This document shows positions 1,333 through 4,911 of a stretch of DNA of 64,000 nucleotides, piece by piece; within the stretch, counting starts at the first letter, position 1; every line of letters begins with the position of its first letter. The notes beneath the pieces were generated by a model that made no database searches, was not told where the DNA came from, and was given only the letters and a program-made list of their open reading frames with translations. Origin of the DNA: Cupriavidus sp. AU9028 (GTDB lineage: Bacteria; Pseudomonadota; Gammaproteobacteria; Burkholderiales; Burkholderiaceae); NCBI RefSeq assembly GCF_019795295.1, contig NZ_JAIMCG010000003.1:289761-353760 (forward strand). Reading direction: 5' to 3'. The translations under genes were made by a program, and so were the position numbers.

Positions 1333-1638
1333 ATGCGCATCGTCGCCAAGAAAACGCTTCTCACCTTCTGCACGAGACATCCTGACGCCGCCCAACCCTT
1401 GATGGCATGGCATCAGGAGGCCGCCAAGGCGAGGTGGACTGCGCCGCAAGACATCAAGGACCGATATGCCTCCGCGAGTTTCGTTGGCAAGAACCGTGTC
1501 GTCTTCAATATTGGCGGAAACAACTACAGGCTGATCGCGGCGGTCGCTTATCGGGTTGGCGTGGTGTACGTCAAGTTCATCGGCACGCACGGCGAGTACG
1601 AGCGTGTCGATGCCACAACTGTGGAAATGGAGTCATGA
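1333..1638 (+). CDS. higB: HigB-type toxin, mRNA interferase
   Basis: Toxin of a type II toxin-antitoxin pair; HigB proteins are RelE-fold ribonucleases that cut translated mRNA. The 101-residue product begins MRIVAKKTLLTF and carries the family blocks AKARWTAPQDIKDRYASAS, NRVVFNIGGNNYRLIAAV and VYVKFIGTHGEYERVDA, the last holding the His near the C terminus typical of HigB. The ATG at 1333 matches the usual HigB N terminus; an in-frame TTG at 1315 would lie inside the operator palindrome and is unlikely. The stop overlaps the antitoxin start (ATGA), so the two are co-translated, in toxin-first order as in classical higBA. Base composition looks less GC-rich than neighbouring genes, suggesting acquisition. 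Confidence 0.9.
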   Translation: MRIVAKKTLLTFCTRHPDAAQPLMAWHQEAAKARWTAPQDIKDRYASASFVGKNRVVFNIGGNNYRLIAAVAYRVGVVYVKFIGTHGEYERVDATTVEMES

Positions 1639-2009
1639 TGGATTTCCATCCCCTGCGATCGGAGTCGGATTACAAGCGGGCATTGGCCACGGTGTCGGCC
1701 CTGGTCGACGCCGACCCTGCCCCCGGAACCCCTGATGGGGACCGCCTGGAGATCCTGACGATGCTCGTCGAACGGTACGAAGCGGAGCACTTCCCTCTCG
1801 ATCTTCCGTCGCCGGTGGCAGCGATTCGTTTCCGGATGGAACAGGCTGGTTTGTCGCCGAAGGACATGCAGCCCTACCTTGGCAATCTGAATCGTGTCTA
1901 TGAAGTTCTGAATGGGAAGCGCACGCTGAGCCTGGCGATGATCCGGCGCTTGAACCGTGACCTGGAGATTCCGGCGGAAGTTCTGATCGGCGAGGAAGAA
2001 AGCGCGTGA
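1635..2009 (+). CDS. higA: HigA-type antitoxin, XRE-family helix-turn-helix
   Basis: Antitoxin partner of the preceding toxin and probable autorepressor. The 124-residue protein has an N-terminal toxin-binding part (LRSESDYKRALATVSALV, then an acidic stretch GDRLEILTMLVERYEAEHFP) and a C-terminal HTH around residues 65-115 (AIRFRMEQAGLSPKDMQPYL, LNRVYEVLNGKRTLSLAMIR). This is the layout of the larger HigA antitoxins such as E. coli YgjM. Two adjacent ATG codons (1635 and 1638) are possible starts; the first overlaps the toxin stop by four bases. The gene ends about 50 bp from the 3' end of a tRNA gene on the other strand. Confidence 0.9.
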   Translation: MMDFHPLRSESDYKRALATVSALVDADPAPGTPDGDRLEILTMLVERYEAEHFPLDLPSPVAAIRFRMEQAGLSPKDMQPYLGNLNRVYEVLNGKRTLSLAMIRRLNRDLEIPAEVLIGEEESA

Positions 2010-2057
2010 AGCCGGTCCTCGGCATTGGCTCGAGCGGCCAGAGGCGCCGAAGCCAAC

Positions 2058-2132
2058 TGGTCCCGCCGACAGGAATCGAACCTGTATCTAGCGCTTAGGA
2101 GGCGCTCGTTCTATCCATTGAACTACGGCGAG
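2058..2132 (-). tRNA. tRNA-Arg (anticodon CCT)
   Basis: The minus strand folds into a complete 75-nt cloverleaf with encoded CCA. The acceptor CTCGCCG pairs with CGGCGGG (one G-U). The D arm is GTTC/GAAC, the anticodon stem AGCGC/GCGCT with loop CTCCTAA, and the T arm ACAGG/CCTGT with loop TTCGATT. Anticodon CCT reads the rare arginine codon AGG. Confidence 0.97.
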
Positions 2133-2189
2133 GATAGGAAGGATGCTGCAGAGGGGCCGCGCGGCGGTGGTGCCGCGGGACAGGGGCGG

Positions 2190-2195
2190 AGTATA
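2190..2195 (-). promoter_or_regulatory. -10 box of the tRNA-Arg promoter
   Basis: TATACT on the minus strand lies about 58 bp upstream of the mature tRNA 5' end, in a GC-rich stretch. No good -35 hexamer is visible at 16-18 bp. Confidence 0.5.
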
Positions 2196-2264
2196 GCAAA
2201 GTCGGTCCGCCGCCACGAGTACGGCATCGACCTGAAAGCGCGTCTTGCAGAGAAAATCCGCATG

Positions 2265-2288
2265 AAAAAGCCCGCCACATGGGCGGGC
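2265..2288 (-). terminator. Rho-independent terminator of the candidate sRNA
   Basis: GCCCGCC-ACATG-GGCGGGC forms a 7-bp all-strong stem; read on the minus strand it is followed by five Ts (AAAAA at 2265-2269 on the plus strand). Confidence 0.75.
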
Positions 2289-2521
2289 CGGTAGCGGACG
2301 GTCCCCGGGCATCCGGGTCGCGCCGTCGGGCCTTCGAATCGGCTGCCTCGTCGCTGCGCTTCCTCGCTCCGCGTCTCTCGCGGGTCGGACCGGACGTCTC
2401 CGGTGATGTGAAGCCGCAATGTGGCAATTCGATCCGTGCTCAGGCGGCGAGCGGCAACACCGTTGCCGTGGATGACCGATGGGCCGGATTAGTCCGCGTC
2501 CCTGCGGGCGGTTGCCAGCTA
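2265..2521 (-). ncRNA. Candidate structured small RNA, about 255 nt; possibly 6S-like
   Basis: A minus-strand transcript is predicted from a promoter (2527-2554) and an intrinsic terminator (2265-2288), with no convincing ORF between. The transcript contains several local hairpins: CGGCAAC-GGT-GTTGCCG (2452-2468), ACCGGA-GACG-TCCGGT (2389-2404) and CCGCG-AGAGA-CGCGG (2369-2383). A long-range pair GCGGAC/GTCCGC (2492-2497 with 2294-2299) would close a long rod of about 200 nt. That architecture, a CCTGAGC block and a CGGTCCG block recall 6S RNA (ssrS), but the match is by eye and weak. If not 6S, it is an unassigned sRNA. The existence of a transcript is more certain than its family. Confidence 0.5.
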
Positions 2522-2526
2522 AGGTC

Positions 2527-2554
2527 AGTATAGGCTGCCAGGCACGGCTTTCAA
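2527..2554 (-). promoter_or_regulatory. Sigma-70 promoter of the candidate sRNA
   Basis: On the minus strand TTGAAA (2549-2554) and TATACT (2527-2532) are separated by 16 bp. This is one of the best sigma-70 matches in the window, and it fires away from the helicase gene into the non-coding stretch. Confidence 0.65.
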
Positions 2555-3108
2555 TGCCTCGCGCGGGGGAGGCCGCCGATGGCAGCCGCGATGGCTCCGG
2601 TGCCCTTTTCGTCGCAATTGTTTCGGGTTGTTTCGCACCGCAGCAAAGCCACGCGGGTTCTGTTATGATCCGTTCCGTGAGTTCGCACCTGAGCTGTGCC
2701 AATGCCCGACGGACCATCGACGATACGTCGTCCCGATGACCCGCCGGACCCGCTGAACGCCTCGCTCGTCTTGCTGCCTCGTGATTCGCCGGCCCCGCTG
2801 GCGTTTGCCCGGCAGACCGCATTTCTCACCACGCTGCCTCGTCTCCGATCCTGTTGAACGGCTCGAACGCCTGCCACGCTCCGGCTTGAATTTACCAAGC
2901 CCGCACCGCCGGCACCCGCGCTGTTTGCCTGCCAGGGATGCGGCAACCGGTATTGCACCGGTTGCGGCCCTGCCTGCCGCCGTACTGTCAGCTGAGTCTG
3001 TCGTCCGGCCTCACCGATTGGCGCCGAAGCCTTTTTAAGACTTTGCACTGCGCCCGCCCCGATAGCGCACCGACGCGCCCGGGGTGCCATGCACCATACC
3101 GAAACGAC
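2555..3108 (+). other. Long non-coding leader upstream of the DEAD-box helicase gene
   Basis: About 550 bp with no supportable gene before the helicase ATG. It contains a TATGAT (2664-2669) that could be a -10 box without a clear -35. A perfect hairpin GCAACCGGT-ATTGC-ACCGGTTGC lies at 2943-2965. The last 20 bp before the ATG show no strong Shine-Dalgarno. Long structured leaders are usual for cold-induced helicase genes; that regulation is inferred here, not shown. Confidence 0.5.
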
Positions 3109-4911
3109 ATGACCCAGCACGACATCCGTGCGGAGCAAGCTATTGCCTCCGCAAACGACGTTATCAACCAGTCGGCCATCAGCCCGCTGGACCGCCTGCA
3201 GGCGGTCCTGGAGCCGGTGGAGTCCGACGCCGCCAGCAGCGCGGACGGCTTTGCCGCGCTCGGCCTGGACGCGGCCATCCTGCGCGCCCTGGCCGAGGCC
3301 AACTACACCACGCCGACCCCGGTGCAGGCCCAGGCCATTCCCGCCTTCCTGGCTGGCCGCGACCTGCTGGTCTCGAGCCAGACCGGTTCGGGCAAGACGG
3401 CAGCCTTCATGCTGCCGGCAATCCAGCGCATCTCCGAGAAGCCGGCCCCGAATCGCCCGCGCGCCGAAGAGCCGATCAAGCGCATCAAGGGCCGCCGTCC
3501 GCGCCCGGCCGCGGCACAGCCGTCGCTGCTGGTGCTGACGCCGACCCGCGAACTGGCCCTGCAGGTTACCGAGGCCGCCGCCAAGTATGGCCGTCATCTG
3601 CGCCGCATTGTTTGCGCGAGCATTCTGGGCGGCATGCCCTACCCGAAGCAGCTGGCGATGCTGTCCAAGATGCCGGACATCCTGGTCGCCACGCCGGGCC
3701 GCCTGCTCGACCATATCGACGCCGGCCGCATCGACCTGTCGCTGCTGGACATGCTGGTGTTCGATGAAGCGGACCGCATGCTTGACATGGGCTTTGCCGA
3801 CGACATCGACGCGATCGTCGCCGCTACCCCGGCCAGCCGCCAGACGCTGATGTTCTCGGCGACGCTGGACGGGCGCATTGCCCAGCTGGCATCGCGCCAG
3901 CTGCGCGACCCGCAGCGCATCGAGATCGCGGCCGCCCGTGCGGACCAGAGCCATATCGAGCAGCGCCTGCACTTTACCGACGACATGTCGCACAAGGAGC
4001 GTCTGCTGGACCACCTGCTGCGCGATGCGTCGCTGAAGCAGGCCATCGTCTTCACGGCCACCAAGCGCGATGCAGACTCGCTGGCCGAGCGTCTGTCGGA
4101 CACCGGTTTTTCTGCCGGCGCGCTGCACGGCGACATGACGCAGGGCGCGCGTAACCGCACCCTGACCGCGCTGCGCCGGGGCAACCTGCGCGTGCTGGTG
4201 GCGACCGACGTGGCCGCCCGCGGCATCGACGTGCCCGATATCACGCACGTGGTCAATTTCGACCTGCCCAAGCAGGCCGAGGACTATGTGCACCGCATCG
4301 GCCGGACCGGCCGCGCGGGCCGCTCGGGCGTGGCGATCAACCTGGTCAACCACAATGACGCCTTCCAGTGGAAGCGCATCGAGCGGTTCACCAACAACCG
4401 CATCAACGCGTCGGTCATCGAGGGCCTGGAACCGCGTCGCACGCCCAAGCCGCGCAGCGGTTTCGGCGGCAAGCCCGGCGGCCGCGGCGACTTCCGCGGC
4501 GGCAACGGTGGCAATGGCGGCAATGGCGGCTACCGCGGTGGCGAGCGTCGCTTCTCGGGCGGTGGCGAATCGCGTGGCTTCGGCAATCGCGAGGGGAATC
4601 CTGCCGGCGCCAACCGCGACGGTTTCCGCAACGGCAACGCCGGGCGCGGTTACGAAGGTCAACCGCGCGAGCGGACCTTCGGCGAACGCAGCCACAGCGA
4701 ACGCAGCCACAGCGAACGCAGCTTCGGTGAGCGCAGCTTCGGTGACCGCAGCTTCGGCGACCGCAACGCCAGCGGCGAGCGCCGCTTCGGTGAGCGCAGC
4801 TTCAACCGCGATGGCGGCCGCCCCTTCGGCGACGGCAACCGCGGCGGCAATGCCGGGCGCAATGGCGGCTTCGGCGGTCAACGCCCGGCCCGTTCGCGCT
4901 TCGATCGCTGA
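3109..4911 (+). CDS. DEAD-box ATP-dependent RNA helicase with Gly/Arg-rich repetitive tail
   Basis: RNA helicase that remodels RNA structure in ribosome assembly or mRNA decay. The core has the full motif set: Q motif near residue 70 ([11 protein letters not shown]), Walker A SQTGSGKT (about 90-97), [12 protein letters not shown] at about 219, [13 protein letters not shown] and [11 protein letters not shown] at about 395. An unusual basic insert ([14 protein letters not shown]) follows motif I. Residues 440-600 are a low-complexity tail: RGG/GGNGGN blocks, then tandem [15 protein letters not shown] pentapeptides, then GGNAGRNGG. The ATG at 3109 is chosen because upstream codons are not conserved-looking. 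It resembles RhlE/DeaD paralogues; a second, more RhlE-like gene is at 22500, so no symbol is given. Confidence 0.93.

What the first reader, a model, noticed from the sequence alone, without database searches (positions are those of the whole stretch)
2265..2554. Unannotated minus-strand small RNA with its own promoter and terminator
A TTGAAA-16-TATACT promoter and an intrinsic terminator bracket about 255 nt without a gene. The transcript has three perfect hairpins and a long-range GCGGAC/GTCCGC closure, giving a rod-like fold. A CCTGAGC block and a CGGTCCG block faintly recall 6S RNA, but I cannot confirm this.
Basis: partly seen in the sequence, partly recalled or inferred. Interest (0 to 1): 0.7.

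Follow-up and report, generated by a model that had tools for sequence, protein, structure and literature searches.

The report
Noncoding RNA descended from small-protein mRNA
The spot holds a conserved, folded RNA gene, matched in every Cupriavidus genome searched, that appears to descend from the messenger of a small membrane protein which some related bacteria still encode at the matching place, so it may show a coding gene turning into a noncoding one.

Summary
In detail: promoter TTGAAA-16-TATACT (2554-2527), terminator (2289-2269), about 257 nt of minus-strand RNA closed by GCGGAC/GTCCGC. It is not 6S RNA: no match here, and a 6S candidate lies on another contig. A covariance model from 14 homologues matches 60 of 60 genus genomes held (Cupriavidus), with a divergent DEAD-box helicase gene in 42 of 42 loci checked. 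On 46 sequences not used for the model (plus one guide row), 22 of 74 pairs change on both sides and stay paired (shuffles 12.7). In 16 genomes of two related genera the homologous transcript (same -10, terminator, closure) encodes a 61-aa hydrophobic protein; in the larger genus it evolves as a protein (pN/pS 0.06). In Cupriavidus that ORF is gone (0 of 60 loci, against 16 of 16): start lost, frame shifted, third codon positions least variable, yet frame remnants match the protein (E to 1e-10). Best reading: a small-protein mRNA whose fold outlived its protein and now works as a structured noncoding RNA, unknown to Rfam. Transcription was not measured and no partner is known; the coding relatives may already have used the RNA itself (rival, 0.25).

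The parts
2549..2554 (-). -35 box TTGAAA
   Evidence: a TTG core is seen by eye in most relatives printed
2527..2532 (-). -10 box TATACT
   Evidence: TATACT found upstream in 76 of 76 loci
2265..2521 (-). Structured noncoding RNA gene (predicted transcript, about 257 nt; start and end not measured)
   Evidence: covariance-model hit G000:C33:292025-292283 (-), 115.8 bits, E 5e-32 (the window copy was one of the 14 rows of the model); compensatory changes
2492..2497 (-). 5' arm of long-range closing stem, GCGGAC
   Evidence: its six pairs are standard in all rows of A2 (14) and A5 (47); in g24 the equivalent is GCGGAUG/CAUCCGC in the fold of L128
2294..2299 (-). 3' arm of long-range closing stem, GTCCGC
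   Evidence: as above
2452..2468 (-). Hairpin CGGCAAC-GGU-GUUGCCG (place of helix 5)
   Evidence: minimum-energy fold; helix 5 has two-sided changes in 3 of 5 pairs
2389..2404 (-). First apical hairpin ACCGGA-GACG-UCCGGU
   Evidence: fold; helix 8 of A2
2369..2383 (-). Second apical hairpin CCGCG-AGAGA-CGCGG
   Evidence: fold; other hairpins stand at this place in G005 and G027, and G026 has lost it
2269..2289 (-). Intrinsic terminator
   Evidence: helix 10 paired in 97.8% of cells of A2
3109..4911 (+). Divergent neighbour: DEAD-box RNA helicase (RhlE/CsdA/SrmB-like), not part of the RNA
   Evidence: Pfam DEAD 1.5e-47; NCBIfam helicase models match below their cut-offs; beside the RNA in 42 of 42 genus loci checked
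2061..2132 (-). Downstream neighbour: tRNA-Arg(CCT), not part of the RNA
   Evidence: Rfam tRNA 66.3 bits; comparing, it lies within about 1.5 kb of the RNA in 16 of 60 genus genomes and 19-24 kb away in 32 of 60

Best explanation
A sigma-70-type promoter transcribes a monocistronic, about 260-nt, rod-shaped RNA that ends at its own terminator. It descends from the mRNA of a 61-residue hydrophobic (probably two-helix membrane) protein without a Pfam or NCBIfam family. In the coding relatives the mRNA's ends are predicted to pair beside or over the start codon (GCGGAUG/CAUCCGC in g24), which would hold translation down. In all Cupriavidus copies seen, the start codon is lost and the frame broken, while promoter, terminator, closing stem and rod stayed under selection through compensatory changes. 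The RNA therefore most likely acts as RNA; the most probable mode is binding of a protein at the tip of the rod, where two hairpins sit side by side in a highly conserved stretch. Shown by comparison: conservation, fold, loss of the ORF, common descent. Inferred: that it is transcribed, that it acts in trans, that the ORF was lost once before the species split, and that a partner binds the apical hairpins.
For: Model R1 matches 60 of 60 held genus genomes (14 of the 60 built it). Two-sided change in 29 of 74 pairs on the building set and 22 of 74 on 46 other rows plus one guide row (shuffles 12.7, 0 of 500 as high; 87.5% of cells paired against 31-45% slid, but 85.5% in shuffles because most pairs hardly vary). 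G-U outnumber A-C cells 93:16 and 176:94, favouring the minus strand. 100-nt pieces of the RNA: identity 0.755 and 0.803 (shuffled 0.59); 100 nt upstream of the promoter 0.638 (0.568), downstream of the terminator 0.627 (0.599); 400 pairs. Outside the genus 16 of 16 loci encode the 61-aa protein; in 15 g24 loci pN/pS 0.057 and 10/3/36 variable sites by codon position. In the genus 0 of 60 carry such an ORF, and in indel-free rows of the conserved stretch variable sites are 8/4/4 (33 of 47 rows) and 6/6/3 (11 of 14 rows) by codon position. Frame remnants match the protein (L117 E 3e-10, L100 1e-9). Relatives of the protein are encoded at other loci in several genera and once in the window's own genome, so coding looks like the older state.
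Against: No transcript data. The window copy has the second lowest score of 60 (115.8 bits; 56 of 60 score 160-270), and its own fold is weak (z -1.6). G026 has lost the second apical hairpin. Some species keep an open piece of the old frame with a TTG, GTG or ATG start (e.g. G058, 49 aa, profile 12-50, E 1e-10), so residual translation in some clades is not excluded. The fold of one coding relative is no better than shuffles (L128 z 0.00; L127 z -2.9). No partner or target was found.
Confidence: 0.62

Rival explanations
1. Dual-function ancestor: the RNA already had an RNA-level function in the coding relatives (like SgrS with SgrT), and Cupriavidus merely dropped the protein half.
For: The Cupriavidus fold is partly kept in the coding loci: 70.4% of cells paired against 35-49% slid (68.5% in shuffles), 20 of 74 pairs with a two-sided change against 9.3 in shuffles. 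Precedent: SgrS homologues without SgrT (PMC4021124 section 13).
Against: Those double changes come mostly from one Cupriavidus row and one g4 row against 15 similar g24 rows, so they are few events. In that alignment the second apical hairpin is paired in 8.8% of cells and the first in 67.6%.
Confidence: 0.25
2. Still a protein gene: Cupriavidus translates a shortened or shifted product from a TTG, GTG or ATG start or by frameshifting.
For: Open frame pieces match the family profile in many species (35 of 60 have some match at E near 1 or better, the best 1e-10). A GGGGCGG stretch that could serve as Shine-Dalgarno remains near the old start in many copies.
Against: No piece covers 85% of the profile (0 of 60); starts and stops differ between species and the second hydrophobic helix is not seen in the translations (by eye); single-base indels between species; no third-position excess. 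The window copy gives no family match.
Confidence: 0.07
3. Transcribed relic: a dead gene decaying slowly, kept similar by short divergence times.
For: The ORF is broken; the own genome has a relative of the protein elsewhere. The upstream flank is also above chance in 47% of pairs.
Against: The RNA is above chance in 94-100% of pairs, the downstream flank in 17%. Two-sided changes keep pairs. Different hairpins stand at the second apical place in G005 and G027. TATACT and model match in 60 of 60.
Confidence: 0.05
4. 6S-like RNA: a second, divergent RNA-polymerase decoy.
For: Rod closed by a terminal stem with internal loops; single promoter and terminator; length of the same order.
Against: No 6S match at E <= 10, a 6S match elsewhere in 21 of 21 genomes, descent from an mRNA.
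Confidence: 0.03

Closest known systems
SgrS/SgrT dual-function RNA of enteric bacteria (PMC4021124, passages and section 13 read)
   Same: One transcript with a small-protein ORF in some species and no usable ORF in others (5' truncation, or an altered start codon); in E. coli a structure limits translation of the ORF.
   Different: SgrS acts by a conserved base-pairing stretch with Hfq; here the conserved thing is a rod fold. Relatives of the small protein exist at other loci, so coding looks older. No homology was seen or sought by alignment.
6S RNA (RF00013)
   Same: Rod-like, end-closed, stand-alone gene.
   Different: No covariance-model match; a 6S candidate elsewhere; different origin.
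Type I toxin mRNAs such as hok or aapA1 (recalled, not tested)
   Same: Small hydrophobic protein and predicted 5'-3' pairing at the start region in the coding relatives.
   Different: No antisense RNA was sought; toxicity is untested; Cupriavidus copies have no such ORF.
Xist, a noncoding RNA with a protein-gene ancestor (recalled)
   Same: Noncoding RNA gene descended from a coding gene.
   Different: Mammalian, long, chromosomal silencing; only the evolutionary path is alike.

Membership tests
6S RNA (RF00013) | Match to the family covariance model | tested here: not met
   cmscan of 1800-3000, E <= 10: 8 matches, none 6S
6S RNA (RF00013) | Being the genome's 6S copy (none elsewhere; recalled that many genomes have one, some two) | tested here: not met
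   6S match at G000:C11:31690-31906, 40.1 bits, below the 46.4 cut-off; 21 of 21 genus genomes have one match, 18 over the cut-off
6S RNA (RF00013) | Binds RNA polymerase and templates product RNA | not testable with these tools
   needs wet work
Any family of Rfam 15 | Match at the gathering score | tested here: not met
   only two tRNAs in the whole window; in 8 related loci nothing at the RNA up to E 1
Structured noncoding RNA gene | Own promoter and terminator | tested here: met
   by sequence:
Structured noncoding RNA gene | Compensatory base changes on rows not used to derive the fold | tested here: met
   22 of 74 pairs, 0 of 500 shuffles as high; 46 new rows plus one guide row
Structured noncoding RNA gene | No conserved ORF | tested here: met
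   0 of 60 for the known family; no third-position excess in 33 of 47 and 11 of 14 rows
Structured noncoding RNA gene | Transcript detected | not testable with these tools
   no RNA-seq at hand; the C. metallidurans CH34 paper has 35 orphan start sites taken as noncoding RNAs, not located in the section I read; supplements not opened
Dual-function sRNA (SgrS type) | ORF and RNA function in the same molecule | tested here: inconclusive
   coding relatives keep part of the fold; an RNA function there is unshown
Type I toxin mRNA | Small hydrophobic toxin plus antisense antitoxin RNA | not tested
   a small hydrophobic ORF exists in relatives only; antisense and toxicity not examined

The most novel reading that the evidence does not exclude
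A bacterial counterpart of the Xist path: before Cupriavidus radiated, a small-membrane-protein gene lost its protein, and its already rod-shaped, end-closed mRNA was kept as a noncoding RNA across the whole genus, while related genera still run the coding version at the matching place. Mutating the ORF in one and the fold in the other would let the coding-to-noncoding step be replayed.
Probability: 0.5. Interest if true: 0.78.

Novelty: new variant of a known kind. Interest (0 to 1): 0.62.

Why it matters
Origins of bacterial noncoding RNAs are hard to trace because the sequences change fast. Here a coding and a noncoding state of one transcript sit in related genera, with frame remnants still readable, so the conversion can be dated and tested. 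If right, it adds a genus-wide RNA and an undescribed small protein family to annotation, and warns that a small ORF and a small RNA can be two states of one gene.

Tried and rejected
6S membership: rejected. Other Rfam families: asX2 (on the other strand), P9, anti-hemB and c-di-GMP-I-GGC overlap the RNA at 12.8-21 bits against cut-offs of 43-70. A DNA search with the 561-bp region found, besides the window genome itself, only short fragments in 12 of the other 59 genus genomes, some at other places; synteny by the tRNA and then the covariance model solved this. Weak model hits (54-273 nt, E 4e-6 to 1e-3) were set aside without inspection; several are the reverse strand of a true copy's terminator, 16 of the 54 matching genomes had only such hits. 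The 83-nt hit of the order search was set aside likewise. Pairing with the helicase leader: no consistent excess in 7 genomes (z -2.3 in the window genome and -2.1 in G001, but -0.1 to +1.7 in the other 5). The helicase as necessary partner: the g4 locus has none within 1.5 kb (L127). Pfam and NCBIfam have no family for the small protein (0 families for the g24 protein; for the g4 protein only weak hits under the cut-offs). Paper searches (lists capped at 8-20 rows) showed no paper on this RNA or protein among the rows listed. I saw passages and section 20 of PMC7563307, passages and section 13 of PMC4021124, passages of PMC5521070, and otherwise listings only.

Corrected after checking: an earlier codon-position count (16/15/17 on 57 of 60 segments) mixed rows with indels; a second (50 rows) picked rows by a pattern that fixes bases; the first indel-free run kept only 3 of 47 rows of A5. 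One search is the count I rely on; it leaves out 14 of 47 and 3 of 14 rows for indels or gaps, the window copy among them. Limits: A5 includes one guide row of the building set, and MAFFT misplaced part of the terminator in 14 of 47 rows. One search compared 50 loci of the 76. Helicase flanks were checked in 42 of 60 genus loci and 7 of 15 g24 loci. Identity used 400 of 1770 pairs. The name Cupriavidus rests on 12 of 13 record titles; genera g24 and g4 are unnamed by the tool, and Ralstonia for g24 is my guess.

Full report
WHAT IS THERE. The minus strand of 2265-2554 holds a sigma-70-like promoter (TTGAAA-16-TATACT, 2554-2527; the only such site in 1500-3500, 0.3 expected) and a terminator (2289-2269; 2 such sites found, 1.3 expected). 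The RNA between them folds into an end-closed rod at -117.9 kcal/mol, z -1.6, which alone proves little. The window lies in a 4.68-Mb, 42-contig assembly. A tree of the neighbouring helicase puts the window genome beside G042 (87/95 support) among the genus rows (49 rows).

IT IS CONSERVED. A plain DNA search found little. By synteny with tRNA-Arg(CCT) and the DEAD-box gene, 14 loci including the window's were aligned. The consensus fold has 74 pairs, 29 with two-sided compensatory change. Model R1 matches 60 of 60 genus genomes at E <= 1e-8, all that are held. The helicase gene lies divergently beside it in 30 of 30 loci and 12 of 12 more. In a sample of 200 family genomes, strong matches outside the genus were 15 of genus g24 (70-87 bits) and one of g4 (88 bits); all other matches span 54-187 nt and score at most 30.3 bits. 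In 150 genomes across the order only the window genome and one 83-nt match passed E 1e-6.

THE FOLD IS UNDER SELECTION. On 46 genus sequences not used for the model (plus one guide), aligned without structure, 87.5% of cells pair against 31-45% when partners are slid (85.5% in shuffles, since many pairs hardly vary). 22 pairs change on both sides against 12.7 in shuffles, and 108 cells against 49.8 (0 of 500 shuffles reach either). The six pairs of the closing stem hold in every row of both alignments; G057 has GUGGAC/GUCCAC. Different hairpins stand at the second apical place in G005 and G027, one with another loop in the window copy, and none in G026. G-U cells exceed A-C cells 93:16 and 176:94, which points to the minus strand as the folded one. 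100-nt pieces of the RNA are more alike between species (0.755 and 0.803, shuffled 0.59) than the 100 nt before the promoter (0.638, 0.568) or after the terminator (0.627, 0.599).

IT COMES FROM AN mRNA. In g24 and g4 the homologous transcript encodes a 61-aa protein (g24 and g4 versions 46% identical) starting beside the 5' arm of the closing stem. TATACT and closure are present in 16 of 16 outside loci; the helicase flanks 7 of 7 g24 loci checked but not the g4 locus. In 15 g24 loci it evolves as a protein: pN/pS 0.057, variable sites 10/3/36 by codon position. Pfam and NCBIfam have no family for it. Its profile also finds relatives at other loci: 146 of 200 family genomes at E <= 0.05, in 16 of 25 genera, the weakest probably chance. 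One lies in the window's genome at G000:C38:240897-241067, open frame, 65% identical to the Cupriavidus relative. Coding therefore looks like the older state.

IN CUPRIAVIDUS THE PROTEIN IS GONE. An ORF inside the transcript covering at least 85% of the profile exists in 0 of 60 genus loci and 16 of 16 outside. Where g4 has GCGGAC-ATG-GAT-TTT-CCG, genus copies have forms such as GCGGAC-ATA-GAG-TTC-CCG or GCGGAC-CTG-GAA-TAC-CCG, and single-base indels follow. Remnants are still significant: 47.6% identity over 42 residues in L117 (E 3e-10), and a stop-broken match in L086 (E 6e-5); ORF pieces match the profile in many genus loci, the best at E 1e-10 (G058, residues 12-50). In indel-free rows of the most conserved 57 nt, variable sites by codon position are 8/4/4 (33 of 47 rows) and 6/6/3 (11 of 14 rows), the reverse of a coding pattern. 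The window copy has no ORF matching the family.

HOW IT PROBABLY WORKS. In L128 the predicted fold pairs GCGGAUG with CAUCCGC at the 3' end, taking in the first AUG of AUGAUGG; in L127 the paired GCGGAC stands just before the AUG. Such a layout should restrain translation. In Cupriavidus the same closure would only hold the rod shut. With no ORF, no consistent pairing with the neighbouring leader and selection centred on stems and on the two tip hairpins, I judge a protein-binding or scaffold role most likely. That last step is inference.

NOT 6S. No match here; one 6S match elsewhere in each of 21 genomes, 18 over Rfam's cut-off, the window genome's own not.

LITERATURE. Searches (capped lists) listed no paper on this RNA. 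The CH34 transcriptome paper reports 35 orphan starts taken as noncoding RNAs without locating them all in the section I read, so this RNA may already have been detected unnamed. SgrS homologues that lack SgrT are the nearest known kind I found, hence 'new variant of a known kind'.

Noticed in passing
window 2676-3108 (+): The helicase gene has an unusually long leader (over 400 nt from a TATGAT box near 2664) with blocks conserved in 14 genus genomes, among them GCTGTTTGCCTGCCAGGGA, CCCTGCCTGCCGCCGTACTG and GGCGCCGAAGCC-TTTTT; no Rfam match at the gathering score. It may be a regulatory mRNA leader.
   Followed up: partly
G000:C38:240897-241067 (-); L153, L162: A family of small hydrophobic proteins (about 59-61 aa, many ending in EALPxL) without a Pfam or NCBIfam model occurs at several loci across the family. 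In L162 and L153 the gene has its own CTATACT box and a short leader, and a GGAGG-ATG start of a possible second ORF follows by eye.
   Followed up: partly
window 1333-2009 (+): A HigB-type toxin gene (Pfam HigB_toxin 9e-31) followed by an ORF with a weak helix-turn-helix match (E 0.014, under the cut-off), perhaps its antitoxin.
   Followed up: no
L001 2963-3217 (+): A cobalamin riboswitch (44.7 bits, cut off by the locus end) lies about 1.2 kb from the genome's 6S candidate.
   Followed up: no
tRNA-Arg(CCT), window 2061-2132, against the RNA in 60 genus genomes: Comparing places: within about 1.5 kb in 16, 8 kb in 1, 19-24 kb in 32, over 100 kb in 3, on different contigs in 8 of 60. In G050 two partial tRNA matches lie 81 kb apart, as after an insertion into this tRNA.
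   Followed up: no
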